A DNA stretch of 64,000 nucleotides, taken from positions 1 to 64,000 of the forward strand of contig NZ_AYKG01000003.1 in the NCBI RefSeq assembly GCF_003788585.1, in the 5' to 3' direction. The stretch is from Salinisphaera japonica YTM-1. GTDB taxonomy: Bacteria > Pseudomonadota > Gammaproteobacteria > Nevskiales > Salinisphaeraceae. This document shows positions 8,153-24,355 of the stretch, piece by piece. How positions within the stretch are numbered: the stretch's first letter is position 1; every line of letters begins with the position of its first letter. The notes beneath the pieces were generated by a model. It was given only the letters and a program-made list of their open reading frames with translations, did not search any database and was not told where the DNA came from. Both the position numbers and the translations under genes were made by a program.

Positions 8153-8180
8153 TCGTCCAGCGATAACCCAAGAAAAGACA

Positions 8181-8208
8181 GCCCGGCCTTCGCGCCGGGC
8201 TTTTTTTT
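8181..8208 (+). terminator. Rho-independent terminator
   Basis: A perfect 7-bp stem GCCCGGC/GCCGGGC with a CTTCGC loop, followed by eight T residues, 28 bp after the stop of the secreted Gln/Lys-rich gene. A textbook intrinsic terminator for that gene. Confidence 0.93.
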
Positions 8209-8210
8209 GG

Positions 8211-8499
8211 TTCATCGCAGATTAATGGGACGCTAAGCCGCGCAGGCCACGCGTCCGCAAAGGACGCAAATGAGCGCAGATAACGTTCGATGTGGCATCG
8301 AAGCGCCGCGCGCCGCCCGAACGCGTGCGCGCTGCACGTGGGTTATCCCGAAAGACGTCTTTCATGGGCCTTCATCGCAGACTTGATTCGCATGAATAGA
8401 CCGTAACCACTATTGCCTGTGGTCTCTATTTGCGTTCTATTCGCGTTTATTTGCGGACTGTCATTCTCGAATCCCGGTGATGTGCGACGAGCCTTTTTT
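8211..8499 (+). repeat. MITE-like element, copy A
   Basis: About 280 bp of non-coding DNA, matched in inverted orientation by copy B at 24085-24353; by eye most positions are identical. The left end TCATCGCAGATTAATGGGA and the inverted right end (positions 8467-8489) form degenerate terminal inverted repeats, better preserved in copy B. A perfect palindrome GAAAGACGTCTTTC lies at the centre (8350-8363). No open reading frame is conserved between the copies. It sits between two convergent genes, immediately after a terminator. It could be a non-autonomous transposable element or a structured RNA or DNA element. Confidence 0.8.
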
Positions 8500-8713
8500 G
8501 GTTCCGAGTTCGGTTTTGGTTGCTGCGGGGCCTGTCGTCCTCAGATAAGCCATCGCACCGGCCGGCCGATACCCTGTTTCTGGTATCCGGCTCGGCTGGC
8601 CGCCGCCGACGAACCGATCATTCAGCCGCCAACCCGCCGTGCGACCCGGCCCACATCGGCGCAATCTGCATCATCTGCGGATCAAACCCCGATGGCATCC
8701 AGAGGATGCGCGA
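8500..8713. other. Intergenic remainder with one CGCAGAT-type repeat word cluster
   Basis: No gene is recognisable. Positions 8655-8687 contain ATCTGCATCATCTGCGGATC, a reverse-orientation cluster of the same repeat words seen in the other intergenic islands. The segment before it includes ATCATTCAGCCG (about 8617), also found in the 15.8-16.0 kb repeats. Confidence 0.6.
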
Positions 8714-9379
8714 TCAGGCGTAGGCGTATTCACCGCCACGCGCCAGCGCGCGCTTGTAGGCCTCGCGCCCATGGATACGCTCAATAAACGCTTTCAACCG
8801 TGGGTGGCTGTCGCGCACGACGCCGCGCGCCGTACCGGCCTCGATCGGAAAGCTGAGCATGATATCCGCGGCCGTGAACGCCTCGCCGACAAACCAATCG
8901 TTATCCGCCAGCTGGTCTTCCAGATAATCGAAATGCAGCTTCTGTTGCGGGCGGATGAACTGTTTCTTGACCTGCCCGGAGATCGCCTTGGCCACGGGCT
9001 TGGCCAGCATCGGCGCACGGGTCTCGACACTATTGAAGATCAGTTGCAGCAACAGCGGCGGCATGAGCGAGCCTTCGGCATAGTGCAGCCAGTATTGATA
9101 GCGCTCGTAGACCAGACTGTCAGCCGCCGGCGCCAAACGCCCCTGGCCGTGACGGCGCACGATGTAATCCACGATATGGCCCGTCTCGGCCACCGTGTTG
9201 TCATCATCGGTGATGACCGGCGATTTACCCAGCGGATGTACGCGCTTGAGTGAGGCCGGGGCCAGATACGTGGCGGGGTCACGCTCGTAGCGCACGACCT
9301 CGTAATCCAGATCCAGTTCTTCAAGCAGCCAGAGCACGCGCTGTGAGCGCGAGTCGGCCAGGTGATGCACGGTGATCAT
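8714..9379 (-). CDS. Glutathione S-transferase family protein
   Basis: A 221-residue GST-fold protein. The N-terminal thioredoxin-like domain (residues 1-80) has the N-terminal SRSQRVLWLLEEL, the cis-proline segment LGKSPVITDD and the glutathione-binding AETGHIVDYI. The helical C-terminal domain (about 88-210) includes the FTAADIMLSFP motif. Expected to conjugate or reduce using glutathione; the substrate class cannot be assigned. Monocistronic, convergent with the Gln/Lys-rich gene across the first repeat island. Confidence 0.92.
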   Translation of the reverse strand: MITVHHLADSRSQRVLWLLEELDLDYEVVRYERDPATYLAPASLKRVHPLGKSPVITDDDNTVAETGHIVDYIVRRHGQGRLAPAADSLVYERYQYWLHYAEGSLMPPLLLQLIFNSVETRAPMLAKPVAKAISGQVKKQFIRPQQKLHFDYLEDQLADNDWFVGEAFTAADIMLSFPIEAGTARGVVRDSHPRLKAFIERIHGREAYKRALARGGEYAYA

Positions 9380-9434
9380 GACGGTTGCCGGTTGGATGGG
9401 TTCAATACCAGCCTACGCTGTCCACGATCGGTGT

Positions 9435-9716
9435 TCAGCCGGCGGCGCGCATGCCGCCACCGCCCCCCGGTCCGCTGGGCGGCTGCCAGACATTGCGAAC
9501 CGCCTGGCGCCCGGCCTGCGGAAAACCGTCGGTAAAGATCAGACGCATGCGCGCGCCCCGGCCCTTGCACTCGATCGCGCCGCGGCGGATATCGAACAGG
9601 GCGAGCACGTCGGCCAGCTCACGTAAGAATCGGGGCGATACCTTGCCGCGCTGAACGTGTATCTGGCGATCGTCATCGATACGTAGCCGAAAATTCAAGC
9701 GGAAGCGATCAAGCAT
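9435..9716 (-). CDS. Small DUF3634-like protein
   Basis: A 93-residue protein. The segment IHVQRGKVSPRFLREL, the central RMRLIFTDGFP and the segment AGRQAVRNVW resemble the DUF3634 family of small gammaproteobacterial proteins, but it lacks the N-terminal membrane helix those usually have. The C terminus is glycine/proline-rich (PPSGPGGGGGMRAAG). No function is known. It lies 55 bp upstream of the GST gene on the same strand and may be cotranscribed with it. Confidence 0.6.
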   Translation of the reverse strand: MLDRFRLNFRLRIDDDRQIHVQRGKVSPRFLRELADVLALFDIRRGAIECKGRGARMRLIFTDGFPQAGRQAVRNVWQPPSGPGGGGGMRAAG

Positions 9717-9765
9717 GCCGCGGCCGTCCTTGGCCTGTGGTTGAAACCCGTGTCAAAGTTTCACC

Positions 9766-10185
9766 ATGAACGATGCACCACGCAACACCGGCGCCGGGCC
9801 GACGGTACGAATCGATAAATGGCTCTGGGCCGCGCGGTTCTTCAAGACCCGCAGCCTGGCCACCGCTGCGATCAAGGGCGGGCACGTCGAGCTCGACGGC
9901 CACAAGGCCAAGGCCAGCGCAGCCGTGCGTGCCGGCCAGATGCTCAAGATCAAGAAGCCCGAGCAGGTCTTTGATGTCGAAATCATCGCCGTATCCGACA
10001 AGCGCGGCCCGGCAAGCCAGGCCGAACAGCTCTGGCAGGAAACCCCGGAAAGCCAGAAACGCCGCGAAGATGAGGCCGCCGAGCGGCGAGCCGCGCGCCT
10101 GACCATGCCTCGCCCGACGGCCCGGCCCGATAAGAAATCACGCCGCCGCCTGCGCCGCTTCAAGCAGGGCGAGGACGCCGGCTAA
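9766..10185 (+). CDS. hslR: Ribosome-associated heat shock protein Hsp15 (S4 domain)
   Basis: A 139-residue S4-domain RNA-binding protein. The S4 motif runs from about residue 12 ([19 protein letters not shown]) to [20 protein letters not shown], followed by a basic tail (about 95-139, rich in Arg and Lys). In E. coli Hsp15 binds 50S subunits carrying stalled nascent chains and helps recycle them after heat stress. It is convergent with the pilin gene, overlapping by 4 bp at the stops (10182-10185). Confidence 0.92.
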
Positions 10186-10667
10186 CGTCGACAGCGCGCC
10201 GGCAGATAGTCGGCCGGCACGCCGTCGGCCCCGCTCGCCGGCGTACAGCGCCAGGTGATGGCACCGGCATCGAAGTGCGCGGCCACCAACAGCACCTTGT
10301 CGTCGATGCCGGGGCCGGCGTATTTGATCTTGATCGCCGGGTCATCGGCGTTGTTGTACCACCAGATCCGTTTGACCGCCTGGCCGCTGGCTGCGCCGGT
10401 CTCGCTGCTGTTGGGCAGGCCGAGTGCGGCCAGCACGTTGGTCATGTGATTGTTGGCGACCTGCGGCAGCCCGCCGTTGACGGCGTAATACTCGGCAACG
10501 GCGTTTTTCACCGGCCCGATTAGCGCCAGCCCTTCGCTGATGTGCGCACGGGCGACATAGTCGCGATACGACGGGATCGCCACCGCTGCCAGGACACCCA
10601 TCACGGCCACGACGATCATCAGCTCGATCAACGTGAAACCTGCCGTATTTCCCCGTGTCGCCTGCAT
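10182..10667 (-). CDS. Type IV pilin-like protein
   Basis: A class III signal peptide is clear: a short basic leader ending in Gly, then the prepilin peptidase site [17 protein letters not shown] with Glu at position +5 and Tyr27-type [11 protein letters not shown]. The ATG at 10667 gives a 10-residue leader and a 161-residue protein; a GTG at 10697 would add 10 residues. The C-terminal half has two cysteines (WRC and ARCRR) that could form the pilin D-loop disulfide. No other pilus gene is nearby, so it may be a stand-alone major or minor pilin or a pseudopilin. Confidence 0.85.
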
Positions 10668-11033
10668 CCTCGACGCCCCCGCCCGTTTCGTTGCCACCCG
10701 CTCGTGTTGTGCCCGAGTGCCACGTCACGCGTCAAAACAGGTTCGGGCGCGCGGCCCATTGCGCCGGCAAAGATCATCTACGCTCAGGGACTTGGCTTAT
10801 CCTGTGCCGCCACAGACAAGACCGCGCATTGCCAGCCATTGCGCAGGCGGCGGGGCGCCGGGTTACGATGCGCAGACGCTGCGCTGGCCCGGCGCCATAC
10901 CCCACGGGCAGACCGGGCGCCTTCATTGGTTATTGATGCCGGGCCGCCCTGACGTCTCGCGATACCCGCCTATCACGGCACTCGTGTTCGGGTACCGAGA
11001 CACTTGATTTTTCGATGCCCTGAAGGGGGCCAC
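10668..11033. other. Divergent intergenic region, pilin to cation exchanger
   Basis: About 366 bp with no credible gene; it must carry the promoters for the leftward pilin and the rightward exchanger. The only clear structure is an imperfect inverted repeat at 10954-11001 (GTCTCGCGATACCCG against CGGGTACCGAGAC) enclosing a small CACG/CGTG hairpin, ending 32 bp before the exchanger ATG. Confidence 0.5.
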
Positions 11034-12065
11034 ATGACACTTATGCCGGCCCTGTCGTTGTGGCCCAATCTGGCGGTGTTTGCGCTCATCGCGGTGATTA
11101 TCGCCGTGGTGGGCACGCGCCTGACCGCGGTGGCCGATAACCTGGCCGATCGAACCGGGCTCGGCGAAGCGGTGATCGGCGCGGTGCTGCTTGGCGCAGC
11201 CACGTCGCTGCCGGGCATCGTGGTCTCGGTAACCGCCGGCTGGCGCGGCGAGGCCGAGCTGGCCATGAGCAACGCGCTCGGCGGTATCGCAGTCCAGACG
11301 CTGTTTCTGGCGGTGGCTGACGTGGTCTATCGACGGGCCAACCTTGAGCATGCCGCCGCCTCGACCGCCAATCTGGCCCAGAGCGCGCTCTTGATCATCC
11401 TGCTGTCGCTGCTGCTGGTCGCGCCTTACTCGCCGGCGTTGACGATCTTTGGCATCCATCCGGCCACGATTGTGCTGTTCGCGGGGTATGCCTTTGGCCT
11501 GCGCGTGGTCAACGATGCCGAGCATTTCCGGATGTGGACGCCGCGCAACACCGAAGAAACCCGCGCGGACGAGCCTGACGACGAGGCCGCGAATCAGGCG
11601 CTCTTCCCGCTATGGGGCCGGTTTGTGGGCCTGGCCGCCGTGCTCGGCGTAGCCGGTTATGTCTTGACCAGCGTGGCGACCCGGCTGGGCAGCCAGACGG
11701 GCATGGGCGAGACGGCCGTGGGCATCGTGCTGACCTCGGTGGTCACCTCTCTGCCCGAGCTGGTGACCTCGATTGCGGCCGTGCGACGCGGCGCGCTACA
11801 GCTGGCCGTGGGCGGCATCATCGGCGGCAACGCCTTTGATTGTCTGTTCGCCGGTGCGGCCGACGTGGCGTATCGCGACGGCTCGATCTATCACGCGGTG
11901 TCCGGGTCGACGCTGCTGTGGATCGCCCTGTCGGTATTGATGACGGGCGTGCTGCTGCTGGGCCTGATCCGGCGCGAGAAGAGCGGCCTGGGCAACGTCG
12001 GCTTCGAGAGTGCGTCGATCGCGGGCCTTTACGTGCTGGGTGTGGCGCTGTCTCTATTCTTCTGA
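11034..12065 (+). CDS. Sodium/calcium exchanger family membrane protein
   Basis: A 343-residue integral membrane protein of the CaCA superfamily with two inverted alpha-repeats. Repeat 1 (about residues 40-90) reads GEAVIGAVLLGAATSLPGIV and repeat 2 (about 220-270) reads GETAVGIVLTSVVTSLPELV. About 10 membrane segments are evident. Repeat 2 keeps the cation-binding SLPE glutamate, but repeat 1 has glycine there. The ATG at 11034 is preceded by GAAGGGGG, a good ribosome site. The 3' end overlaps the convergent phosphoribosyltransferase by 12 bp. The exchanged ion is not determined. Confidence 0.85.
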   Translation: MTLMPALSLWPNLAVFALIAVIIAVVGTRLTAVADNLADRTGLGEAVIGAVLLGAATSLPGIVVSVTAGWRGEAELAMSNALGGIAVQTLFLAVADVVYRRANLEHAAASTANLAQSALLIILLSLLLVAPYSPALTIFGIHPATIVLFAGYAFGLRVVNDAEHFRMWTPRNTEETRADEPDDEAANQALFPLWGRFVGLAAVLGVAGYVLTSVATRLGSQTGMGETAVGIVLTSVVTSLPELVTSIAAVRRGALQLAVGGIIGGNAFDCLFAGAADVAYRDGSIYHAVSGSTLLWIALSVLMTGVLLLGLIRREKSGLGNVGFESASIAGLYVLGVALSLFF

Positions 12066-12617
12066 CGCCGTGAAGATCGGCAGATGACCGAGGGCGATCA
12101 CATCCGCCCAGTCCGCGCGATCGCCTTCGGTGAAGATCGCGGCCTCGCCGGCGATGATCGAACGCGCCTCGTGCATGATCGCCTGCATGGCCTGCAGCGT
12201 GGAGCCCGAGCTGATCACGTCGTCGACCAGCACGATACGTGCGCCCTCGACCAGCGCCCGGTCTTTTTCATCCAGATAGAGCGTCTGCTCGTCGCCCGTG
12301 GTGATCGAGTGGGTCGTCGCCGATAGCGCATCGCCCATATAAGGCTTGTACGACTTGCGCAGCACCACATAAGGCCGGGCCGTGGCCACCGATAGCGCAT
12401 GCACCAGCGGGATCGACTTGGCCTCGGCCGTGACCAGCACGCCATAGTCCAGCGCGGCCAGCTTGTTGGCCAGGCCCGTGGCCGCGGCCTGGACCAGTGC
12501 GGTATCACCCAGCACGTTCAATACCGCGATCTGCACGCCGTCGGCGACCTCGAACAAAGGCAGCTCGCGCTTGAGGCCGGCGATATCCACGGGGTGCGTC
12601 TGGCGGGTCGGTTGCAT
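12054..12617 (-). CDS. Adenine phosphoribosyltransferase-like protein
   Basis: A type I phosphoribosyltransferase of about 187 residues. The PRPP-binding motif IVLVDDVISSGST is intact, and upstream segments VLVTAEAKSIPLVHALS and YVVLRKSYKPYMGDAL resemble adenine PRTases, which make AMP from adenine and PRPP. The family includes PRTases of uncertain base preference, so the purine specificity is inferred. The ATG at 12617 precedes the start of similarity; an in-frame upstream start at 12707 would add 30 unlikely residues. Divergent from the alcohol dehydrogenase. Confidence 0.8.
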   Translation of the reverse strand: MQPTRQTHPVDIAGLKRELPLFEVADGVQIAVLNVLGDTALVQAAATGLANKLAALDYGVLVTAEAKSIPLVHALSVATARPYVVLRKSYKPYMGDALSATTHSITTGDEQTLYLDEKDRALVEGARIVLVDDVISSGSTLQAMQAIMHEARSIIAGEAAIFTEGDRADWADVIALGHLPIFTASEE

Positions 12618-12749
12618 GATCGGGTCGGGTGGGTCGATGAACGCGGCGTATTGTGCAACAGCGCGGCCGGTAATTCGACGCATGGCCCATCGCGCGCGAT
12701 GAGACAAGCCGCTACATTGCCCCTACCTGTTTATCTGTGAGGTTCTGTC

Positions 12750-13877
12750 ATGCAGACCCGTGCCGCCGTTCTACGCACCGCCGAGGCCGAGCGCCCCTAC
12801 GATCAGTCGCGTCCGCTTGCGATCGAAACCTTCGAGCTGGCCGAGCCACGCCCCGGTGAAGTCTTGCTCAAGATCCGTGCCGCCGGGCTGTGTCATTCCG
12901 ATCTGTCGAGCATCAACGGCAATCGCCCGCGGCCCACGCCGATGGTGCTGGGCCACGAGGCCGCCGGCGAGATCATCGCGGTGGGCGACGGCGTATCGAA
13001 TTTCGCCGTGGGCGATCACGTGGTCTGCTCGTTCGTGCCCAGCTGTGGCCACTGTGACTACTGCGCCGACGGGCGGGCCGCGCTCTGTACGCCGGGGGCC
13101 GCGGCCAACAACGCCGGCACGCTGCTCGGCGGCGATTTCCGGCTGAGCCAGAACGGTGACGACATCTATCACCATCTGGGTGTGTCCGGCTTTGCCGAAC
13201 ATGCCGTGGTGGCCACCGAGTCGTTGGTCAAGATCGACCCCGAGCTGCCTTTCGAGGTGGCCGCTGTCTTTGGCTGCGCGGTACTGACCGGCGTGGGCGC
13301 GCTGCTCAAGACCGCCCGCATGACCCTCGGGCAGAGCGTGCTCGTCGTGGGTCTGGGCGGCGTGGGCCTGTCGGCGGTGCTGGGCGCGATCGCCGGCGGT
13401 GCCGCCCAGGTCATCGCCGCGGACATCGACGACGAGAAACTGGCCAAGGCGCGCGAGCTGGGCGCGACCGCCACCATCAACACACGCGACGACGATGCGC
13501 TTGAGCAGGTGCAGCAGCTGAGCGGCGGCGGCGTGGATCTGGCCGCCGAATTCGCCGGCGTGGCCGCCGCCCTGGAATTCGCCTTCGAAGCCACCGGCAA
13601 GGGCGGAACCACGGTGACCGCCGGCCTGCAGCATCCCGATGCACGCATGGCCCTGCCTGCCCTGAAGCTCGTCGCCCAAGAGCGCTCGCTGCTGGGCTCG
13701 TATCTCGGCGGCCATGTGCCCAAGCTCGATATCCCCGAATACATCGCGCTCTATCAGGCCGGGCGCCTGCCGGTGGACAAACTGCTCACCCACCGGCTGA
13801 CGCTGGACGAAATCAACACCGGCTTCGAGCGGCTGGCCGCCGGCGAGGCGATCCGTCAGGTCATCGTCTTTGATTGA
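12750..13877 (+). CDS. Zinc-dependent alcohol dehydrogenase (MDR superfamily)
   Basis: A 375-residue medium-chain dehydrogenase/reductase. The catalytic-zinc region has GLCHSDLSSING and MVLGHEAAGEI. Structural-zinc cysteines are in CGHCDYCADGRAALC. The NAD(P)-binding Rossmann motif VLVVGLGGVGLSAV lies at about residues 197-210. It resembles class III/NDMA-type or AdhC-like dehydrogenases; the substrate is unknown. Downstream, 64 bp away, is the azurin-like electron carrier, though a functional link is not evident. Confidence 0.9.
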   Translation: MQTRAAVLRTAEAERPYDQSRPLAIETFELAEPRPGEVLLKIRAAGLCHSDLSSINGNRPRPTPMVLGHEAAGEIIAVGDGVSNFAVGDHVVCSFVPSCGHCDYCADGRAALCTPGAAANNAGTLLGGDFRLSQNGDDIYHHLGVSGFAEHAVVATESLVKIDPELPFEVAAVFGCAVLTGVGALLKTARMTLGQSVLVVGLGGVGLSAVLGAIAGGAAQVIAADIDDEKLAKARELGATATINTRDDDALEQVQQLSGGGVDLAAEFAGVAAALEFAFEATGKGGTTVTAGLQHPDARMALPALKLVAQERSLLGSYLGGHVPKLDIPEYIALYQAGRLPVDKLLTHRLTLDEINTGFERLAAGEAIRQVIVFD

Positions 13878-13941
13878 TGCCGGCTTGTCTGCGCGGCGGC
13901 CACCCCAATCATCCGGGCATTGCATCGAACCAAGGCTCGTC

Positions 13942-14391
13942 ATGTCACTACGTGCTCTACTCGTCGCCGCGCTTGTCGGCCTGTCGCTGTCGCCACTGGC
14001 CGCACAGGCTGATGCCTCATTCAAGATTATCGGCCAGAACGACCTGCGTTACTCGAAGGAGCATCTGCGCGTGGCGCCGGGCGAATCGGTGACCGTCAAA
14101 CTGGTCAACAAGTCACACCTGCCGGCCTCGGCCATGGCGCATAATTGGGTGCTGCTCAAACACGGCGCTGATGCCGATGCCTTCGACAACGCGGCGCAGA
14201 ACGCGCCGGCCAACGATTACTTCCCGAAAGCCCGCGCCGATCAAACCATCGCGCATACGGGCATGGTCGCCGGCGGTAAAAGCGATACGGTGACGTTCAC
14301 CGCGCCCGACAAACCGGGTGACTACAGCTATATCTGCACCTTTCCCGGGCATTTCGCGGCCGGCATGAAAGGCGTGCTCACCGTCAAGTAG
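13942..14391 (+). CDS. Azurin/auracyanin-like blue copper protein
   Basis: A 149-residue periplasmic type 1 copper protein with signal peptide (LLVAALVGLSLSPLAAQA, cut near AQA/DAS). Copper ligands are recognisable: His in SAMAHNWVLLK, then Cys, His and Met in ICTFPGHFAAGMKGVL. The ligand loop is C-x4-H-x4-M, one residue longer between His and Met than classical azurin and as in auracyanin. The N-terminal disulfide cysteines of azurin are absent. It should carry single electrons in the periplasm; partners are unknown. The ATG at 13942 begins the signal peptide. Confidence 0.9.
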   Translation: MSLRALLVAALVGLSLSPLAAQADASFKIIGQNDLRYSKEHLRVAPGESVTVKLVNKSHLPASAMAHNWVLLKHGADADAFDNAAQNAPANDYFPKARADQTIAHTGMVAGGKSDTVTFTAPDKPGDYSYICTFPGHFAAGMKGVLTVK

Positions 14392-14469
14392 GCCCGCTCG
14401 GCCGGCGCGGGCTTGTTCTTGCGGCCGGTCGAACCCAGATCCTATCCATCTATCGCACAAGGATCATCA

Positions 14470-15582
14470 ATGGCTTACGAACGCTTGCTATCACCGATGA
14501 CGGTCGGTGCCGTGGAACTGCCCAACCGGGTATTCATGGCGCCGCTCACGCGCGCCCGCTGCCCGGATCAGGTGCCGGGTGAAATGCAGCAGACCTATTA
14601 TGCCCAGCGTGCCGGCGCGGGCATGATCATCTCCGAGGCCACCAATATCTCGGAATCCGCGCGTGGCTATGTCTATACGCCGGGTATCTTCACCGATGCC
14701 CAGGAAGCGGGCTGGAAAGACGTGCTGGGGGCCGTTCACGGTGCCGGCGGACGCATGTGCTGCCAGCTCTGGCACGTCGGGCGCGTGGGTCATGAAATGG
14801 TGCACCCCGATGGGCGCAAGCCGGTCGCCCCGTCGGCGTTGAAAGCCGAGGGCGCCCAATCGTACGTCGAATTCGAGGATGGCAGTTCCGGATTGCACGA
14901 CACGGCCACACCGCGCGCACTGGAAACCAAAGAAATCCCGGGCGTCATCGACGAATACCGCCAGGCTGCCATTCGCGCCAAGCGGGCCGGCTTTGACATG
15001 GTTGAAGTGCATGCCGCCAATGCGTATCTGCTGCAGCAATTCCAGGCCACCGGCTCGAACCAACGCACCGACGCCTACGGCGGCAATCTGGAAAACCGCG
15101 CCCGGCTGACGCTGGAAGTGGTCGATGCCGTCATCGAGGTGATGGGGGCTGATCGCGTAGGCATTCGCCTATCGCCGTTCATCGAGATCTTCGGCCTGAG
15201 CGACGACGAGCCCAAGACCATGGCCTTCTACATGGCCGAGCAGCTCAACGAGCGCGGCCTGGCCTATGTGCACGTGGCCGAACCCGACTGGGCCGGCGGC
15301 GATGTCTCCTTGAGCGCTGATTTCCGCGCCGCGATGCGCGAGCGCTTCACCGCCGGCGCACTGTTGTTCAACGGCCACTACACGGCCGACAAGACCGAAG
15401 CCCTGATCGCCGACGGCTTAGGCGACGGCGCCTCCTTCGGCCGGCCTTATATCGCCAACCCGGATCTCGTCGAACGCTTCCGCCAGAACGCCGAACTCAA
15501 CGAGCCCGATCCCAGCACCTTCTATGGGGGTGACGAGAAAGGCTATACCGACTACCCGACGCTCGCCGAGCAGAAGGGCTAG
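14470..15582 (+). CDS. nemA: Old yellow enzyme family ene-reductase (NemA-like)
   Basis: A 370-residue FMN-dependent TIM-barrel flavoprotein that reduces activated C=C bonds, nitro compounds or N-ethylmaleimide with NAD(P)H. Recognisable are NRVFMAPLTRARC near the N terminus, CCQLWHVGRVGH, the substrate-binding VEVHAANAYLLQQF, QRTDAYGGNLENRAR and VGIRLSPF. The substrate-binding histidine pair is H-A-A-N, the form found in NemA-like members. The ATG at 14470 begins just before the family start. A terminator follows, so it is likely a single-gene unit. Confidence 0.92.
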   Translation: MAYERLLSPMTVGAVELPNRVFMAPLTRARCPDQVPGEMQQTYYAQRAGAGMIISEATNISESARGYVYTPGIFTDAQEAGWKDVLGAVHGAGGRMCCQLWHVGRVGHEMVHPDGRKPVAPSALKAEGAQSYVEFEDGSSGLHDTATPRALETKEIPGVIDEYRQAAIRAKRAGFDMVEVHAANAYLLQQFQATGSNQRTDAYGGNLENRARLTLEVVDAVIEVMGADRVGIRLSPFIEIFGLSDDEPKTMAFYMAEQLNERGLAYVHVAEPDWAGGDVSLSADFRAAMRERFTAGALLFNGHYTADKTEALIADGLGDGASFGRPYIANPDLVERFRQNAELNEPDPSTFYGGDEKGYTDYPTLAEQKG

Positions 15583-15606
15583 GGTCTAGCTCAAGTAGTC
15601 GGCGAC

Positions 15607-15634
15607 AAGCCGGGGCATTCGCTCCGGCTTTTTT
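15607..15634 (+). terminator. Rho-independent terminator
   Basis: Stem AGCCGG/CCGGCT around a GGCATTCGCT-type loop, followed by six T residues, 25 bp after the ene-reductase stop. Confidence 0.88.
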
Positions 15635-15758
15635 ATGCGCGTCCGAAAAAACGTTTATCCGCAGATGGACGCAGATGACGCAGATTTTGGCTTGGCGAGC
15701 GTCGACGATCAGGGCTGAATAATAAGACGCTCGCTCGTCTTAGCGTTAAGCGAAGATG
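15635..15758 (+). repeat. CGCAGAT-type repeat cluster
   Basis: At 15653-15690 three CGCAGAT words follow TTTATC in tandem (positions 15660, 15669 and 15678, approximately), then GGCTTGGCGAGCG and GGGCTGAAT. The same order of words recurs in reverse at 15835-15887 and in forward orientation at 45307-45365. No gene is visible in this segment. Confidence 0.7.
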
Positions 15759-16110
15759 AAGACAGAAATTTTTTGTTTTTCATTCTCACTCAACACACGC
15801 CCACGCCTTGAGCAATCATTCAGCCGTAAACGTCCACGGCCACCAAGCCCAAATCTGCGTCATCTGTGTAAATCTGCGGATTAAAAAGAACGTGCCCCAG
15901 AGTCAGCCAGAAAGCGCCTGCACACCGTGGCTTTAAGACAAAATCCAGTTGTCTTTTATTTCCACGCAACACAAGCCCACGGCTCGCGCCATCATTCAGC
16001 CGTAGGCTTCAACGGCCACTAAGCCCACATCTGCGTCATCTGCGTAAATCTGCGGTTTAAAAAGAACGCCCCGCAAAATCACCCAGAAAGCGCCGCAGCA
16101 CGCCCGCGTC
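15759..16110. repeat. 176-bp tandem duplication, two abutting units
   Basis: Units 15759-15934 and 15935-16110 align at a constant offset of 176 bp. Shared landmarks are AAGACA (15759/15935), CAACACA (15791/15967), ATCATTCAGCCG, AAGCCC (15845/16021), the reversed CGCAGAT cluster and TTAAAAAGAACG (15881/16057). The last about 32 bp of unit 2 are the 3' end of the nickel transporter gene (stop at 16079-16081), so unit 1 carries a decayed copy of that gene end (CCAGAAAGCGC at 15907). The units have diverged substantially. Confidence 0.85.
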
Positions 16111-17068: not shown

Positions 17069-17087
17069 GCCTTGTCTTGTTGATGTA

Positions 17088-18710
17088 TCAGCCCGCGTTC
17101 AACGGCTCGGTCGCCCGGCACAACGAGCACACCACCCCGCCCTGATAAGCCGAATACAACACGTCCGGACGCTCGAAATCCGCCTGGCAGGACTGGCAGG
17201 TATGGACATCGGCCGAGGGCGTGCCGTCGGCGGTAAAACGCGGCGAATCGATGCCGTCATCATCGCGGGCCAGATAATACCGCCCGCCGGTGAGTGCCGC
17301 CAGAATTGGCGGCAACACCCCACCAACACTCACCGCCACCAGCGGCGAATAGGACGACAGAAACGCGCCCAGCAAGCCGAAATAGGCCGCGATCGCCAAC
17401 CCCGCCGAGGCCACGAATGCGATCGTGCCCACCGGATTGACGGCATACAGCATGCCACGCCTGAACTCCGGCTCCTTGGGCGACAACCCAAGCAGATATT
17501 TGTTGATCACGATATCCGTGGCCACCACCACGACCCAGGCGATCGCGCAGTTCGAGTAAAAGCCCAGAATATTGCCCAGCACGGCAAACATGTTGCCTTC
17601 CATGAGCGCCAGGGCGATTGCCAGGTTGACCACGACGAACACGATGCGCCCCGGGTAGTGACGGGTGATGCGGGTGAACGCATTGGTCCAGGCCAGCGAG
17701 CCCGAGTAGGCGTTGGTGACGTTGATCTTGATCTGGCTGATGACGACCAGGATCACCGATAGCGTCAGGGCTGCCCACAGGGGCAGCATCTCGGAAAAGA
17801 TCGAGACGAACTGGCGTACCGGCTCGGTGGCCGCCGAGTCGGCGACCTTGGACATCAAATAGAAGGCCAGCAGCGCACCGATCATCTGCTTGGCCGCGCC
17901 CAGAATCACCCAGCCCGGCCCGGCGGCCAGCACGGCGGCCCACCAACGCCCGCGGTTCTCACGGGTCTTGGCCGGCATGAACCGCAAGTAGTCGATCTGC
18001 TCACCAATCTGGCCCATCAGGGCGAGACAGACGCCCGCCCCCAGCATGACGGCCGCGATACTCACCCCGCCGTAACCCTCGGTGCCCTGGTAGGCCATCC
18101 AGTCGCCCAGAATAGCCGGCTGGCTGGATACCAGATAAATCACCGGGGCCGCCATAAGAATCAGCCAGAACGGCGTGGTCCAGAGCTGGAGCTTAGACAA
18201 CGCCTTCATGCCGTAGATCACAAGCGGCAACACGATGAGCGTGGACGCCAGATAGCCGGCCCATAACGGCACGCCCAGCCCCACCAACAAGCCCTGGGCC
18301 ATGATCGAGCCTTCCAGGGCAAAGAAGATGAACGTAAACGAGGCAAAGATGATCGCCGTGAGCACCGAACCGTAGTAGCCGAAACCGGCCCCGCGGGTGA
18401 TCAGATCCAGATCGATGTTGTAGCGCGCCGCGTAGTAAGCCACCGGCAAGCCGGTGACGAAGATCAGGGCCGCGGCGAACAGGATCGCCAGAATCGCATT
18501 GACGGTGCCAAAACTGATGGCGATGCTCGCCCCGATGGAGAAATCCGCCAGATAGGCGATGCCGCCGAGCGCGGTGATGGCGACCGTGCCCGTGCTCCAG
18601 CGCCGGAACGAGTGCGGCGCATAGCGCAGGGTGTAATCTTCCAGCGTTTCGTTCTTCTTGGCCGTTTCGGTATCGATCGAACGGCCGATCTGCTCGGCGG
18701 TCGTTGCCAC
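17088..18710 (-). CDS. NCS1-family nucleobase/cation symporter with C-terminal zinc-ribbon tail
   Basis: A 540-residue transporter with about 12 membrane helices, similar to cytosine/purine/allantoin permeases (N-terminal ETLEDYTLRYAPHSFRRWS, LITRGAGFGYYGSVL). The last 45 residues form a probable zinc ribbon, with CQSC near 504 and CSLC near 530, an unusual addition for NCS1 proteins. The GTG start at 18710 has only a weak GAGCAAG site. Position between ureG and the nickel transporter suggests import of urea or a urea-yielding nitrogen compound such as allantoin, cytosine or another pyrimidine; the substrate is not proven. Confidence 0.85.
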   Translation of the reverse strand: MATTAEQIGRSIDTETAKKNETLEDYTLRYAPHSFRRWSTGTVAITALGGIAYLADFSIGASIAISFGTVNAILAILFAAALIFVTGLPVAYYAARYNIDLDLITRGAGFGYYGSVLTAIIFASFTFIFFALEGSIMAQGLLVGLGVPLWAGYLASTLIVLPLVIYGMKALSKLQLWTTPFWLILMAAPVIYLVSSQPAILGDWMAYQGTEGYGGVSIAAVMLGAGVCLALMGQIGEQIDYLRFMPAKTRENRGRWWAAVLAAGPGWVILGAAKQMIGALLAFYLMSKVADSAATEPVRQFVSIFSEMLPLWAALTLSVILVVISQIKINVTNAYSGSLAWTNAFTRITRHYPGRIVFVVVNLAIALALMEGNMFAVLGNILGFYSNCAIAWVVVVATDIVINKYLLGLSPKEPEFRRGMLYAVNPVGTIAFVASAGLAIAAYFGLLGAFLSSYSPLVAVSVGGVLPPILAALTGGRYYLARDDDGIDSPRFTADGTPSADVHTCQSCQADFERPDVLYSAYQGGVVCSLCRATEPLNAG

Positions 18711-18844
18711 GTCTTGCTCACGTTTTGTAAACGATGTGCGGGCTGGAGCAAGTGTCGTGCCAGATCGAGCGGGCCCTCAGACCCAGGTGCCGGCGATCAC
18801 GGGGTCTGATTTGCCTTGTTTAGGTGCGGCTGCACCGTTTTGTA

Positions 18845-19456
<612 letters not shown>

Positions 19457-19476
19457 TGTCTGGCTCTATCTCGAAT

Positions 19477-20172
19477 TCAGGAACGATAAAGACGCGAATA
19501 CAGGGTTTCATGCCCGGCCGAGGCCATCGCCAGCCCGGGCAGCGAGCCACCCAGCTGGTCGTCACTTAGTGCGGTGGCCCGGGCAACGCCGGCCGGAATA
19601 TCGCCGGCCAGCTCGAAGAGCAATCGCTGGCCGGCCGTCTGGCCCAGCGGCACGAGCTTGACGGCCGCCAGCACTTGGTTCTCCAGCCAAGCCCAGGCCA
19701 TGGCCGACAGGCTGTCCGTGACCGCGATCTGCCAGCGCGTGGCGGCCAGCGCCCAGAGCGCAGCGAAGGTTACAGCCGGCGCATGGGCCCGGCCGAGGCG
19801 CCAGTCCGCGGCTTCGGTCATATCCATCGCGCACAGAAGATTGGCCAGCGCATGACCGAGATGGCGCTCCTGGGCGCGTCGCTCGGCGGTCTCACGCATG
19901 GCCAGCAGTCGGGCGCTCCAGGTTGTCACGTCATCAATCGACGCCGCCCGCCAGGCCGTATGCAGCCGCTGCGTGATTGCCAGGTCGCCCGGCACGACAC
20001 TGTAGGTGAACGCCCCGCGCAGCCAGTCGGCGACGGCATCGACGTGGGTGATCTGGCCGTCGGCCACGGCGGTTTCCAGACCCTCGGAATAAGCAAAGGC
20101 GCCAACGGGCAGCGACGGGCTGGCCAGCTGTAGCAGGCGCTGGAGCGCTAGGCCCGGCTGGCCGTCACCCAT
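19477..20172 (-). CDS. ureF: Urease accessory protein UreF
   Basis: A 231-residue all-helical protein that acts as the GTPase-regulating partner of UreG in the UreD-UreF-UreG activation complex. N-terminal LQLASPSLPVGAFAYSEGLE and C-terminal region with LEGDIPA-like AGDIPAGVARATALSDD are diagnostic. The ATG at 20172 overlaps the ureE stop by 8 bp; the frame is open further upstream through ureE, but family similarity starts here. Confidence 0.93.
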   Translation of the reverse strand: MGDGQPGLALQRLLQLASPSLPVGAFAYSEGLETAVADGQITHVDAVADWLRGAFTYSVVPGDLAITQRLHTAWRAASIDDVTTWSARLLAMRETAERRAQERHLGHALANLLCAMDMTEAADWRLGRAHAPAVTFAALWALAATRWQIAVTDSLSAMAWAWLENQVLAAVKLVPLGQTAGQRLLFELAGDIPAGVARATALSDDQLGGSLPGLAMASAGHETLYSRLYRS

Positions 20173-20695
20173 GAGCCTGGCGGGGTGTCTCGTCCAGTGC
20201 GGCGGTATGATCCGCATGGCCATGCCCGTGGGAATGCGGGTGATGATGCCCACCCGCAGCGTGGGCATGCCCTTCGTAGGCGCCCGGCTCGGGCTGAAAG
20301 GCACAGCAGCAGGCTCTGGGGGTCACGCCGAGCCCGGCGACCATGGCATCAAGCACGTGATCATGGCGATAGGCCACCGCTTCGCAGGTTACCTGCAGCG
20401 GCACGTGACGATTGCCCAGGTGATAACAGATCCGGTTGAGCAGCAGCCGATCGTGACAGTGCACATAGGACAGTGCTTCCGGCGCGGCGGCCACACGTAC
20501 ACACACCGAGCGCTCGGCATCGGTAAGCACGTCACCGTCGACCAGAACACTGCCACGCGCCAGCTGTATGCCGGCTTCGCGTCCGTCGTCGAGCACCACG
20601 CGCTGGCGCGATTTCTGGCGGGCATCGAAATCCAGCGTCACGGTGGTATGAATCAGCGCGGGCGCCGCATCTTGTTTTCTATCGAGTCGTATCAT
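20165..20695 (-). CDS. ureE: Urease nickel metallochaperone UreE
   Basis: A 176-residue UreE. The N-terminal peptide-binding domain starts at MIRLDRK, and the C-terminal metal domain contains HCHDRLLLNRICYHLGNRHV and CEAVAYRHDHVLDAMV. The C-terminal tail is histidine-rich (about 12 His in 35 residues, for example GGHHHPHSHGHGHADH), which should store or deliver nickel. The ATG at 20695 is chosen by family alignment; another in-frame ATG at 20734 would add 13 residues. It follows ureC by about 70 bp and overlaps ureF. Confidence 0.93.
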   Translation of the reverse strand: MIRLDRKQDAAPALIHTTVTLDFDARQKSRQRVVLDDGREAGIQLARGSVLVDGDVLTDAERSVCVRVAAAPEALSYVHCHDRLLLNRICYHLGNRHVPLQVTCEAVAYRHDHVLDAMVAGLGVTPRACCCAFQPEPGAYEGHAHAAGGHHHPHSHGHGHADHTAALDETPRQAHG

Positions 20696-20767
20696 GGGTT
20701 CTGCCCGGTTGCCGGGTCTTTTGGTGTCGCGCATCGCGATCGCGGGAACAGGCGCCATCCGGTGCGC

Positions 20768-22468
20768 TCAGAACAGGAAATAGCGCTGTGCCAGCGCAAG
20801 CTCTGTGGCCGGCTCACAGGTTAACAGCTTGCCATCGGCACGCACTTCGTATGTTTGCGGATCCACGTCGAGATCGGGGCAATAATCGTTGTTCTTCATG
20901 TCGGCCTTGGACAGCGTTCGTGTGTTGCGTACGGCCACCAGCCGCTTGCCAAGGCCCAGCCGTTCGCCAATGCCGGCATCGATGGCGGCCTGTGAGGTGA
21001 ACGTCACCGATGTGGCCGCGGTTGCGCGGCCAAAACCGGCGAACATGGGCCGATAATGAACCGGCTGCGGTGTGGGGATCGAGGCGTTGGGATCGCCCAT
21101 CGGCGCCACCGCGATCATGCCGCCCTTGATCACCAGGGCCGGCTTGGCCCCGAAGAACGCCGGTTTCCAGAGCACCAGATCGGCCAGCTTGCCGACTTCC
21201 ACCGAGCCCACCTCGTGGGCGATGCCGTGGGTGATGGCCGGGTTGATGGTGTATTTGGCGATATAGCGCTTGGCGCGGGCGTTATCGGCCGTCGTGTCGT
21301 CATCCAGCGGGCCACGCTGCAGACGCAGCTTGTGTGCGGTCTGCCAGGTCCGGGTGATCACTTCACCCACGCGGCCCATGGCCTGCGAGTCGGAGGCGAT
21401 CATGGAAAACGCGCCCAGGTCATGCAGGATGTCCTCGGCGGCGATCGTCTCGCGCCGGATACGCGAATCGGCAAACGCCACGTCTTCGGCGATCGCCGGG
21501 TTCAGGTGATGACAGACCATGAGCATATCCAGATGCTCATCCACCGTGTTGGCGGTATACGGCCGCGTCGGGTTGGTCGAGGACGGCAGGATATTGGCCT
21601 TGCCGGCCGCCACGATGATGTCCGGCGCATGGCCGCCGCCGGCGCCCTCGGTGTGATAGGTATGGATCACCCGGTCGCCGAAAGCCGCAAACGTATCCTC
21701 GACGAAACCCGATTCATTGAGCGTATCGGTATGAATCGCCACCTGTACATCAAGGGCATCCGCCACGCTGAGACAGTTGTCGATGGCTGCGGGCGTGGTG
21801 CCCCAATCCTCGTGTAGCTTGAGCCCGGCCGCACCGGCCACGATCTGTTCGTGGAGTGCTTCGGGTTGGCTGGCATTGCCCTTGCCCAGAAACGCCAGAT
21901 TCATGGGAAAGCCTTCGGCGGCCTCGAGCATGCGGTGCATATGCCACGGCCCGGGCGTGACCGTGGTGGCCTTGGTGCCCGTTGCCGGGCCGGTGCCGCC
22001 GCCGATCATAGTGGTTACACCGGAAGCCAGGGCCTCCTCAATCTGCTGCGGGCAGACATAATGGATATGCGAGTCGATACCACCGGCCGTCAGAATTTGG
22101 CCTTCGCCGGCGATGATCTCGGTGCCCGGGCCGATGATGATATCGATCGCGTCCATGACATCCGGGTTGCCGGCCTTGCCGATCCCGCTGATACGCCCGT
22201 TTTTGATCGCCACGTCGGCCTTGACGATGCCCCACCAGTCCAGAATAACGGCGTTGGTGATGACCGTGTCGGCCGCCGTTTCGTTGGTGGCCTGGCTCTG
22301 GCCCATGCCGTCACGAATGACCTTGCCACCGCCGAAGGAGACCTCGTCACCGGGCTGGCCGATATCGCGCTCGATCTCGATCGTCAAGGCCGTATCGGCC
22401 AGGCGTAGACGGTCACCGGTCGAGGGGCCGAACATTTCGGCGTGGGCGCGTCGGTCCATATCGGTCAT
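20768..22468 (-). CDS. ureC: Urease subunit alpha (catalytic)
   Basis: A 566-residue catalytic subunit hydrolysing urea to ammonia and carbamate at a binickel centre. Visible active-site parts are [11 protein letters not shown] (nickel histidines), [12 protein letters not shown] (the carbamylated lysine), [17 protein letters not shown] and the flap cysteine/histidines in MVCHHLNP. Length is normal. The start overlaps the ureB stop by 4 bp, giving coupling. All catalytic motifs are intact, so the enzyme should be active once matured. Confidence 0.98.
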
Positions 22469-22791
22469 GTGTTGTCTGCCGTATCAAGGGCGCCCATCAC
22501 CGCGCCGCGAAAGCCATAGACCCGACGTGCACCGACATAGGGCACCAGCGTGATCCGGCGCGTATCGCCGGGCTCGAAACGCACGGCGGTGCCGGCGGGC
22601 ACGTCCAGACGATGCCCGCGTGCGGCATCGCGATCGAACACGAGCGCCGGGTTGGTTTCAGCAAAATGATAGTGCGAACCCACCTGAATCGGCCGGTCGC
22701 CGGTGTTGGCGACATCCAGCGTCAGGCGCTCGCGGCCGGGGTTGATCTCGACACGGCCAGCGCGGGGCAAAAGTTCTCCGGGATGCATCAA
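22465..22791 (-). CDS. ureB: Urease subunit beta
   Basis: The small beta subunit (108 residues) of the UreABC trimer. The family pattern is present: [31 protein letters not shown] and [11 protein letters not shown]. It lies 7 bp after ureA and overlaps ureC by 4 bp. Confidence 0.97.
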
Positions 22792-22798
22792 TGGACTC

Positions 22799-23101
22799 CT
22801 ATACGATGGGGTCGTGCACGGTCACGAGCTTCGTGCCGTCGGTGAACGTGGCCTCGACCTGTACCTCGGTCAGCATTTCCGGCACCCCGTCCATGACGTC
22901 TTCACGCGTGAGCAACGTGCGTCCGTGGGCCATCATGTCAGCCACGCTGTACCCGGCACGCGCGCCCTCCATGAGGGCAGAGGCGATATAGGCCATCGCC
23001 TCCGGATAATTGAGTTTCAGGCCCTTGTCTCGTCGACGCTCGGCCAGCAGGCCGGCCGAAAAGATCAGCAGTTTGTCTTTCTCGCGAGGTGTCAGTTCCA
23101 T
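22799..23101 (-). CDS. ureA: Urease subunit gamma
   Basis: The 100-residue gamma subunit of urease. N-terminal [21 protein letters not shown]-type sequence, central [17 protein letters not shown] and C-terminal [18 protein letters not shown] are canonical. First structural gene of the operon, 41 bp after ureD. Confidence 0.97.
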
Positions 23102-23142
23102 CGTCTCTACCGTTTAAGCCGCGGGCATCGCCCGATGCGTGC

Positions 23143-24009
23143 TCATGTTGCCCAGATACGCGGGGCGACCGCCGGTTTGCCCATCACCCGCGGACGCAGC
23201 GCCTGCCAGGCCAGCGCCAGTGTTTCACGCACGAAACGGCTGCTCTGGCCGAGCGCGCGCACGACCAGCAGTTGATCCACTAGCGTAACTGTATAACGCC
23301 CGTCGCCACTTACGGCGAGCTGGCGCAGTGCCTCGATGTCCTGCGCCACAAAGTCCTCGGGGCGATATGCAATGAGCGTGCCCATCGCGATCGCCCCGCC
23401 CAATCCCCAACCGGCATCCTGCAGGCACGAGTCGGCAAGACCCGGCACCCGCGTGCGCTCGGAAAAGATCGGGCGCGCCTCCAGACGCACGTCGAGACGC
23501 GTATCGAGATGGCCCTGCATCAGGCGTTCTTCGATGGCCGGCCGGCCCAGCACCACGCTGTCCCAGACGATGACACGGCTGTCGGCCGATAGATCCACGT
23601 CAAGGCTCAGGGCAACATTGGCGCCGTCGAACAGAATCGCTTCCTGGGGAAGCCACTCCAGCCGACTGTTCGGCCCGGCATGCAACCCCACGCGTTGATG
23701 GGTGCCGGTTGCCGGTGTGCGATAGAACTTGCCGGCCGAGGGGGTCGTGACGAGCACGCTGGCCGCATCGACGGCCTCGATATCGATATCGATTCGATCG
23801 CCCTGAACCAACCCGCCCGGCGGGTGCAACAGCATAAGATGCGCAGTGCCATCGTCCTCTGGATACAACGCCCGCTGAATATACAGCGGGCCGGTATGCT
23901 GGCGCCGCACGGGCACGCTGCGCCCGTTTGATCGGGCCAGGCCCAGATCGATCTGCGCGCACCAGCCGGCGGCCGCAGCCGGGTCAGGACATTGTGGTGT
24001 CAGCGTAAT
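23143..24009 (-). CDS. ureD: Urease accessory protein UreD, probable rare start codon
   Basis: UreD (UreH) binds apo-urease and with UreF and UreG delivers nickel. Family motifs are GPLYIQRALYPE, HLMLLHPPGGLVQGD and TTPSAGKFYRT. The first ATG/GTG/TTG in frame is GTG 23916 (257 residues), but the in-frame sequence upstream encodes AGWCAQIDLGLARSNGRS, the conserved UreD N terminus. The frame is open back to a TGA at 24055-24057 with no ATG, GTG or TTG. The likeliest start is ATT at 24009-24007 (6 nt after GAGAG) or CTG at 24003-24001, giving about 286-288 residues, the usual family length. First gene of the operon. Confidence 0.88.
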   Translation of the reverse strand: MTLTPQCPDPAAAAGWCAQIDLGLARSNGRSVPVRRQHTGPLYIQRALYPEDDGTAHLMLLHPPGGLVQGDRIDIDIEAVDAASVLVTTPSAGKFYRTPATGTHQRVGLHAGPNSRLEWLPQEAILFDGANVALSLDVDLSADSRVIVWDSVVLGRPAIEERLMQGHLDTRLDVRLEARPIFSERTRVPGLADSCLQDAGWGLGGAIAMGTLIAYRPEDFVAQDIEALRQLAVSGDGRYTVTLVDQLLVVRALGQSSRFVRETLALAWQALRPRVMGKPAVAPRIWAT

Positions 24010-24020
24010 GACAAGCTCTC
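24007..24020 (-). promoter_or_regulatory. ureD: Putative ureD ribosome site with non-canonical ATT start
   Basis: On the minus strand GAGAG (24020-24016) precedes ATT (24009-24007) by six bases. This is a modest Shine-Dalgarno match, but it is the only start-like arrangement that keeps the conserved UreD N terminus. CTG at 24003 is the alternative. Confidence 0.45.
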
Positions 24021-24084
24021 GACGGATAACGGGCCCCGGTGGTTTTACACAAACTCATGCATCCGGGGAAGATGTTTCACGCAC

Positions 24085-24353
24085 AAAAAAGGTTATTCGC
24101 AGATTACCGGGATTCGAGAATGACAGTCCGCGAATAAACGCAAATAAAGCTGGTGGTTACGGTCCATTCATGCGAATCAAGTCGGCGACGAAGGCCCATG
24201 AAAGACGTCTTTCGGGATAACCCACATTTAGCGCGCACGCGTTCGGGCTGCGCGAGTCGCTTCGATGCCACATCGCACGTTATTTGCGCTCATCTGCGTC
24301 TTTTGCGGACGAGTCGCCTGCGCCGCGTGGCATCCCGCTAATCTGCGGTGAAC
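24085..24353 (-). repeat. MITE-like element, copy B
   Basis: Inverted counterpart of copy A (8211-8499). Its ends form clear terminal inverted repeats: TTCGCAGATTACCGGGAT (24096-24113) and, inverted, ACCGCAGATTAGCGGGAT (24332-24349). The central palindrome GAAAGACGTCTTTC is at 24200-24213, and similarity to copy A continues over the whole length, into the CCTTTTTTG flank. The element lies between the urease operon start and the terminator of the upstream EF-hand gene, so any urease promoter must lie in or right next to it. Confidence 0.82.
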
Positions 24354-24355
24354 AC

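What the first reader, a model, noticed from the sequence alone, without database searches (positions are those of the whole stretch)
8211..24353. Inverted pair of a 260-280 bp MITE-like non-coding element
8211-8499 and the reverse complement of 24085-24353 match over nearly their whole length. Shared blocks include CGCAGATTA-x-x-GGGA, GATGTGGCATCGAAGCG, CGAACGCGTGCGCGC, GGGTTATCCCGAAAGACGTC, GACTTGATTCGCATGAAT, GGACTGTCATTCTCGAATCC. Copy B has terminal inverted repeats (TTCGCAGATTACCGGGAT against ACCGCAGATTAGCGGGAT), and both copies are centred on the perfect palindrome GAAAGACGTCTTTC. There is no shared ORF. This fits a non-autonomous transposable element or a conserved structured element that I cannot match to a named family.
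Basis: partly seen in the sequence, partly recalled or inferred. Interest (0 to 1): 0.78.

Follow-up and report, generated by a model that had tools for sequence, protein, structure and literature searches.

The report
Mini-transposon that inserts in transcription terminators
The two matching stretches are copies of a small gene-less jumping element, of a kind moved by a known type of bacterial transposase, that sits in the run of Ts just after a gene's transcription stop signal and duplicates that run, so the stop signal should stay whole.

Summary
The pair belongs to a family of 7 full copies (263-285 bp) plus 1 internally deleted copy in this genome. It is an ISL3-type MITE: its ends match those of an intact ISL3 insertion sequence in the same genome, whose transposase passes the ISL3 family cut-off. 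Two relatives lack both window copies; at copy B the empty site shows an 8-bp target duplication, ACAAAAAA. The notable feature is the target. Each of the 7 full copies abuts a GC hairpin plus T-run, i.e. an intrinsic terminator (read). Related insertion sequences in the genus do likewise: 33 of 38 sampled end flanks carry an A/T run of 5 or more, against 0.5% of random window sites; all 16 T6+ flanks follow a stem, against 27 of 93 other T6+ runs. A distant ISL3 element of the genus does not (1 of 8), nor does the deleted copy. The rebuilt tract should leave the terminator working. The MITE's core carries inverted ~10-bp iterons like those flanking GxxExxY genes; that part is unexplained. RNA function is not supported (0 of 85 pairs covary). 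ISL3-type MITEs are already published; terminator targeting I did not find described.

The parts
8180..8201 (+). intrinsic terminator hairpin of the gene upstream of copy A
   Evidence: terminator scan, 8 pairs, 7 G-C; a corresponding hairpin and T-tract without the element in G011 and G010
8201..8208 (+). left flanking repeat of copy A (TTTTTTTT), i.e. the terminator T-tract
8209..8493 (+). copy A of the ISL3-type MITE, 285 bp
8209..8230 (+). left terminal inverted repeat of copy A
   Evidence: resembles the left end of the resident ISL3 element
8472..8493 (-). right terminal inverted repeat of copy A (diverged)
8253..8284 (+). inner inverted iteron array, left (imperfect)
   Evidence: read from the sequence; same repeat type flanks GxxExxY genes
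8427..8458 (-). inner inverted iteron array, right
   Evidence: strict pattern hit 8439-8457; fragment hits elsewhere in the genome
8350..8363 (.). central palindrome GAAAGACGTCTTTC
   Evidence: intact in 5 of 7 copies
8494..8501 (+). right flanking repeat of copy A (TTTTTTGG; 6 of 8 identical to the left)
24091..24353 (-). copy B of the ISL3-type MITE, 263 bp, with an inner deletion relative to most other copies
24083..24090 (-). target duplication of copy B, ACAAAAAA on the + strand (distal side)
   Evidence: empty site GCACAAAAAAGCCCC in G011
24354..24361 (-). target duplication of copy B, ACAAAAAA on the + strand (hairpin side)
24361..24386 (-). intrinsic terminator hairpin next to copy B, behind the - strand ORF 24416-25231
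   Evidence: terminator scan, 11 pairs; ORF
24127..24145 (+). inner iteron array of copy B (strict pattern hit)

Best explanation
The two stretches are copies of a MITE mobilised in trans by an ISL3-family DDE transposase, such as the intact one at G000:C45:48462-49664. The transposase recognises the ~21-23 bp inverted ends and moves the element into an 8-bp AT-rich target, which is duplicated. In this lineage the usual target is the T-tract just downstream of the hairpin of an intrinsic terminator. Because the 8 bp copied are the tract itself, the upstream gene keeps hairpin plus T-tract, so insertion should be nearly harmless. Shown from sequence: copies, ends, duplications, empty sites, a partner gene with matching ends, and the association with terminators. 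Inferred: mobilisation in trans, active target choice rather than survival of harmless insertions, and unchanged termination. The middle of the element is not a recognisable piece of the resident IS; it contains inverted iterons of another repeat class of this genome.
For: 7 full copies and 1 deleted copy in the genome. Resident IS ends GGTTCTTCGCAGACCAGCGGGAT and GATTCATCGCACATTACCGGGAA resemble the MITE ends. The resident and the G010 transposases pass the NCBIfam ISL3 cut-off (304.8 and 331 bits against 180); the G010 one hits PF01610 at 2.2e-68. The 8-bp flanks are identical in 2 of 7 full copies (C34, C23a); for copy B the duplication ACAAAAAA is read from the empty site in G011, and G010 is empty there too; site A is empty in both. 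Each of the 7 full copies has a GC stem plus T-run on one side (read);'s fixed offset 6 of 7 reach -12 kcal/mol or better, and C4 only -6.0 because its T-run is shorter and the stem is cut. IS end flanks in G006, G009 and G010: A/T run of 5 or more at 33 of 38, of 4 or more at 38 of 38, against 95 and 288 of 19,748 random sites of the window. T6+ flanks with a stem (-10 or better, within 2 bases): 16 of 16, against 27 of 93 other T6+ runs in genus loci and the window (342,097 bases, partly overlapping, runs de-duplicated; Fisher p 4e-8). With a looser rule on all T-type flanks: 16 of 20, against 13 of 56 T5+ and 4 of 11 T6+ runs of the window. The same ends next to A/T tracts occur in other bacteria, including a 179-bp MITE at a terminator in L099.
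Against: The other full copies have imperfect flanking repeats: A 6 of 8, C15 6, C4 5, C23b only 2; I put this down to slippage and mutation, which is not shown. The deleted copy on C41 has TAAGATAA / TAAAATTA flanks (6 of 8), no A/T run of 5, and only weak stems. The partial copy in G009 lies at TTATTATG without a T-run of 5. The resident IS has mismatched flanks (AATAAAGC / AAAAAAGG, 6 of 8) and no stem at the computed distance. A related IS in G215 has a perfect TTTTTTTA repeat but no hairpin beside it, so a hairpin is not strictly required. Of six plasmid relatives (60-64% identical), three have AT-rich repeats that are not T-tracts. Hairpin-like folds are common here: 24% of random window positions pass the looser stem rule. 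Some of the 38 flanks may be two ends of one insertion. Insertions elsewhere may simply have been lost.
Confidence: 0.9

Rival explanations
1. Concerns the target step only: the element inserts anywhere AT-rich, and only copies in harmless places such as just behind terminators survive selection.
For: Three of six plasmid relatives have AT-rich, non-T-tract sites; the G215 element sits in a T7A tract without a hairpin; the deleted copy and the G009 partial copy are not at clear T-tracts. T6+ runs are scarce in the window (11 apart from the element sites), and 27 of 93 in genus loci are at stems.
Against: The junction lies 4-9 bases from the best nearby stem in 16 of 17 IS flanks with a stem of -10 or better. 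Orientation is biased: 27 of 31 flanks of the commoner IS end type fit right end facing the hairpin, and 7 of 7 flanks of a second end type fit the reverse (counted, 4-base runs included; flanks not all independent; the second IS is inferred from its ends, its gene was not found in that assembly). A distant ISL3 element in G008 shows an A/T run of 5 or more at only 1 of 8 right flanks.
Confidence: 0.35
2. A conserved structured RNA or regulatory element, not a mobile one.
For: The RNA fold is more stable than shuffles (z -3.06 and -2.69).
Against: 0 of 85 pairs with changes on both sides; no promoter-like site in the two stretches scanned; no Rfam match at these places; empty sites in relatives and target duplications.
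Confidence: 0.04
3. A segmental duplication of an intergenic stretch.
For: Two copies lie in inverse orientation in one window.
Against: 7 full copies with sharp common ends and different flanks; wider queries around A and B matched the other full copies over the element only.
Confidence: 0.01

Closest known systems
187-bp ISL3-type MITE of Microcystis aeruginosa (PMC11448079, passages seen)
   Same: Short element whose ends, beginning GGCTCTTCG, match ISL3 elements of the same genome; 8-nt direct repeats.
   Different: Different sequence; there it lies in a gene (sbp). The word 'terminator' does not occur in that paper.
ISL3 family insertion sequences (PF01610, NF033550)
   Same: Partner of 1.3 kb with an ISL3 transposase, ends starting GG, 8-bp repeats. 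PMC5395568 (passage seen) gives 15-39 bp imperfect repeats and 8-bp direct repeats for the family.
   Different: That paper says the target preference of ISL3 elements is not known and suggests AT-rich regions; here it is mostly terminator T-tracts.
ISL3-linked vanHAX insertion in an Enterococcus faecium rRNA operon terminator (PMC11702846, passages seen)
   Same: 8-bp target duplication with an ISL3 element at one end, inside a putative rho-independent terminator.
   Different: A single rearrangement that disrupts the terminator; no general preference in the passages seen.
TnGBS and related Mutator-type elements (PMC3942029, passages seen)
   Same: Works like it: an element aiming at a fixed spot relative to a transcription signal, with oriented insertion.
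   Different: Other transposase superfamily; aims upstream of promoters, not at terminators.
Group IIC introns (recalled, no call)
   Same: Insert just behind intrinsic terminators.
   Different: RNA-based, without inverted ends or target duplication.

Membership tests
ISL3-type MITE | short, no transposase gene of its own | tested here: met
   263-285 bp in the 7 full copies; no ORF of 100 aa or more inside either window copy
ISL3-type MITE | terminal inverted repeats matching an ISL3 IS | tested here: met
   resident IS at C45
ISL3-type MITE | 8-bp target site duplication | tested here: met
   exact in C34 and C23a and in copy B by its empty site; imperfect in the other 4 full copies and the deleted copy
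ISL3-type MITE | multiple dispersed copies with empty sites in relatives | tested here: met
   7 full copies; sites A and B empty in G011 and G010; the other five sites were not compared
ISL3-type MITE | moved in trans by the ISL3 transposase | not testable with these tools
   needs a transposition assay
ISL3 insertion sequence (partner) | ISL3 DDE transposase above curated cut-off | tested here: met
   NF033550 331 (G010) and 304.8 (G000) bits against 180; PF01610 231.1 against 23 for the G010 protein
Structured RNA family | covarying base pairs or an Rfam match | tested here: not met
   0 of 85 pairs; no match at these places
GxxExxY-type iteron element (core of the MITE) | inverted iteron arrays bounding a GxxExxY gene or a gene-less core | tested here: inconclusive
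   same iteron type, inverted, inside the MITE, but imperfect, without the gene, and the unique middle was found only in copies of the MITE

The most novel reading that the evidence does not exclude
The MITE is a chimaera. ISL3 ends have captured a gene-less member of a second, apparently undescribed mobile system: layered palindromes bounded by ~10-bp-spaced iterons, some of which enclose a lone GxxExxY (PD-(D/E)XK-type) gene whose product acts on them. The ISL3 ends then spread it to terminators as safe havens.
Probability: 0.3. Interest if true: 0.75.

Novelty: new variant of a known kind. Interest (0 to 1): 0.5.

Why it matters
If the target preference is active, it is a simple answer to how a DNA transposon can multiply without harm: it enters the T-tract of a terminator and rebuilds that tract by its own target duplication. 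It would give ISL3 elements a stated target (one paper seen here calls it unknown) and suggest integration vectors aimed at terminators. The inner iterons point to a repeat system tied to GxxExxY genes for which my searches showed no description.

Tried and rejected
Structured RNA: folds better than shuffles but shows no covariation. Plasmid search with copy B at distant sensitivity: no match. Outward promoter: none by the simple scan. RAYT/REP origin: a RAYT-like gene follows an ISL3-like end in G005 and G009 (L046, L053, recognised by eye), but it looks inserted into an old element and is absent from the MITE. GxxExxY as the mover of the whole MITE: rejected because the outer ends match ISL3; kept only as a possible source of the core. 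Near ISL3 relatives are few: 2 of 369 class genomes at E<=1e-120 and 2 of 85 order genomes at E<=1e-100, each count including G000 itself.

Rows dropped: only four IS-end types were used for the 38 flanks (19 in G006, 11 in G009, 8 in G010). The complete IS in G010:C3 and the end at G006:C60:5681 were fetched but left out; other weaker matches were not fetched for this. Of 11 ISL3 matches in G008 I read the flanks of the 8 full ones. Of the PF13366 loci given, L336 (no motif), L337, L340 and L341 (partial or weak) were not tested; matches without a locus were not examined.

Literature searches on ISL3 targets, terminator insertion and ISL3 MITEs. On GxxExxY. In those listings and the passages seen no paper described an ISL3 preference for intrinsic terminators, or GxxExxY genes bounded by iterons. 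No paper was read whole; most subscription journals are not held.
Full report
Observation. The two stretches match as described. A search of the window's own genome (G000, 3.26 Mb in 69 contigs) with copy A gave 22 matches at E<=0.01: 7 full copies, two pieces that form one internally deleted copy on C41, and 13 short pieces. Among 61 genomes searched with copy B, full copies appeared only in G000; G009 holds a partial copy (212 of 291 bases), and the matches in G003, G006 and G052 are short iteron pieces. The aligned copies share sharp outer ends, GGTTCATCGCAGATTAGCGGGA on the left and, read inwards, GGTTCTTCGCAGATCACCGGGA on the right. The element is 263-285 bp (copy B 263 by its empty site; others), with borders 8209-8493 and 24091-24353 in the window.

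It moves. In relative G011 the sequence at site B reads GTTTCACGCACAAAAAAGCCCCG. In the window the element stands between two copies of ACAAAAAA at that point. G010 is empty there too. Site A is empty in both relatives, behind a corresponding hairpin and T-tract, but about 210 bp next to copy A are missing there as well, so the exact junction cannot be read. The two 8-bp flanks are identical in two other copies, C34 and C23a, and imperfect in the remaining four full copies (6, 6, 5 and 2 of 8).

Its partner. Searching the genus for the outer ends led to a 1.3-kb element in G010 with the same kind of ends and an ISL3 transposase (PF01610 at 2.2e-68, with the ISL3 HTH and zinc-ribbon domains). 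G000 has its own intact copy at C45, 67% identical in protein, with ends GGTTCTTCGCAGACCAGCGGGAT and GATTCATCGCACATTACCGGGAA. Both proteins pass NCBI's ISL3 cut-off. Beyond about 23 bp I see no likeness between the MITE and the IS (by eye), so the MITE does not look like a simple deletion derivative of the resident IS. G006 carries a second MITE family with the same kind of ends, 507 bp in two copies and 793 bp in a third that holds an insert.

Where it lands. Each of the 7 full copies has a GC-rich stem followed by a T-run at one end (read;'s fixed offset 6 of 7 stems reach -12 kcal/mol and C4 is cut to -6.0; the stems at sites A and B are terminator-like by the scan). The left end of the MITE faces the hairpin in 5 of 7 and the right end in 2 of 7. 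The deleted copy (TAAGATAA / TAAAATTA, weak stems) and the partial copy in G009 (TTATTATG) are not at clear T-tracts. To see whether the pattern is general I took 38 contig-end flanks of IS ends from G006, G009 and G010. An A or T run of 5 or more touches the junction in 33 of 38 and of 4 or more in 38 of 38; for random positions of the window the figures are 95 and 288 of 19,748. Where the flank has T6 or more, a stem of -10 kcal/mol or better ends within 2 bases of it in 16 of 16, against 27 of 93 T6+ runs elsewhere in genus loci and the window (342,097 bases, partly overlapping, runs de-duplicated). With a looser rule on all T-type flanks the figures are 16 of 20, against 13 of 56 T5+ and 4 of 11 T6+ runs of the window, while 24% of random positions also pass. 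The junction lies 4-9 bases from the best stem in 16 of 17 flanks with a good stem. The insertion is oriented: 27 of 31 flanks of the commoner IS end type fit its right end facing the hairpin, and 7 of 7 flanks of a second end type fit the reverse (counted). The second IS is inferred from its ends; its gene was not found in the G010 assembly. These flanks are not all independent, since one insertion can supply two. As an internal control, a different ISL3 element in G008 (37% identical protein) shows an A/T run of 5 or more in only 1 of 8 right flanks (read by eye).

Limits of the target claim. A relative in another family of the class (G215) has a perfect TTTTTTTA repeat with no hairpin beside it. 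The resident IS itself has imperfect flanks (6 of 8) and no stem at the computed distance. Of six plasmid relatives at 60-64% identity, three (Serratia, Sphingobium, P. aeruginosa) have AT-rich repeats that are not T-tracts, while P. juntendi and Halomonas have A/T runs at the junctions I could read. So the T-tract is probably what is recognised, with terminators as a main source of T-tracts here, or with the hairpin helping. Loss of harmful insertions could add to the pattern. Outside the genus, the same 16-base end next to an A/T run was seen in 7 loci: three of one gammaproteobacterial MAG (L099, L125, L160) and one each from Shewanella, Marinobacterium, Mariprofundus and Pseudohalioglobus. 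L099 is a complete 179-bp MITE at a terminator, and L138 (Marinobacterium) an ISL3-like gene start behind a terminator-like stretch.

How it probably works. The transposase pairs the ends, cuts the T-tract with an 8-bp stagger and inserts the element. Gap repair copies the tract to both sides. The upstream gene thus keeps hairpin and T-tract. The strong fold is a by-product of inverted ends and inner inverted arrays; no pair shows a double change among 7 copies. Mobilisation in trans and unchanged termination are inferred, not shown.

The core. Inside the ends lie two inverted arrays of ~10-bp iterons (GTCCGCAAAGAACGCAAATGAGCGCAAAT ... TTTATTTGCGTTTTATTCGCGTTTATTTGCGGAC), the left one imperfect. 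In G000 this iteron pattern (up to 2 mismatches) is found 219 times, against 2 for the reversed control; in many of the loci read the arrays form nested inverted pairs. Both GxxExxY (PF13366) genes of G000 are bounded by such arrays. In a survey of the class, 29 of 185 genomes had PF13366. Of 27 loci tested (two of them from G000), 18 had inverted repeats on the two sides of the gene scoring above 17.06, the 95th percentile of 60 mismatched-locus controls (control maximum 23), 4 more look alike by eye and 5 do not. The iteron sequence differs from locus to locus: the pattern of G000 itself is on both sides in only 4 of 27 (reversed control 0). The genes are rare on plasmids (8 of 72,556 records) and were not found in phages (0 of 50,697) with one query at E<=1e-5. 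Whether this is a mobile system is not shown.

What is known. ISL3-type MITEs exist: PMC11448079 (passages) describes one in Microcystis with GGCTCTTCG ends and 8-nt repeats. PMC5395568 (passage) says the ISL3 target preference is not known and suggests AT-rich regions. PMC11702846 (passages) reports an ISL3-linked insertion with an 8-bp duplication in an rRNA operon terminator of Enterococcus faecium, an independent single case. PMC9208149 (passages) reports ISL3 over-represented between genes that point the same way. My searches listed no paper that I saw to state a terminator preference for ISL3.

Verdict. The element is a new MITE of the ISL3 kind, made interesting by its terminator T-tract target and by its unexplained core.

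Noticed in passing
window 15658-16056, 35425-35974, 45257-45706; L343-L372: Inverted, often nested pairs of ~10-bp iteron arrays (TCCGCNNATNNACGC...), 219 arrays in the genome against 2 for the reversed control; some loci look like onion-layered palindromes.
   Followed up: partly
L041 (G000:C16, between carA-like and carB-like genes, by eye), L042 (G000:C10), L314-L342: GxxExxY (PF13366) genes are bounded by inverted iteron arrays whose sequence differs from locus to locus: 18 of 27 loci above the control's 95th percentile, 4 more by eye, 5 not.
   Followed up: partly
window 8502-8713: A further stretch of about 210 bp directly after copy A is also absent from G011 and G010; part of it (about 8592-8688) recurs at G000:C20:12133-12229. 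Not identified.
   Followed up: no
L046 (G005:C28), L053 (G009:C22): At what looks like one shared terminator an ISL3-like end is followed by a RAYT-like gene with GGGGTCAGACAC-type repeats nearby (recognised by eye).
   Followed up: no
L149 (Mariprofundus contig): ISL3-like ends about 2.8 kb apart behind a terminator-like hairpin enclose another transposase-like frame (by eye), perhaps a nested insertion.
   Followed up: no
window 22033-22319 (+): Rfam match to the 5' ureB sRNA family, 87.5 bits; it may simply reflect conserved urease coding sequence on the other strand.
   Followed up: no
G006: L050, L057, L059; also L043, L054: A second MITE family with ISL3-like ends (507, 507 and 793 bp, the last with an insert); L043 and L054 show one clear end.
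   Followed up: partly
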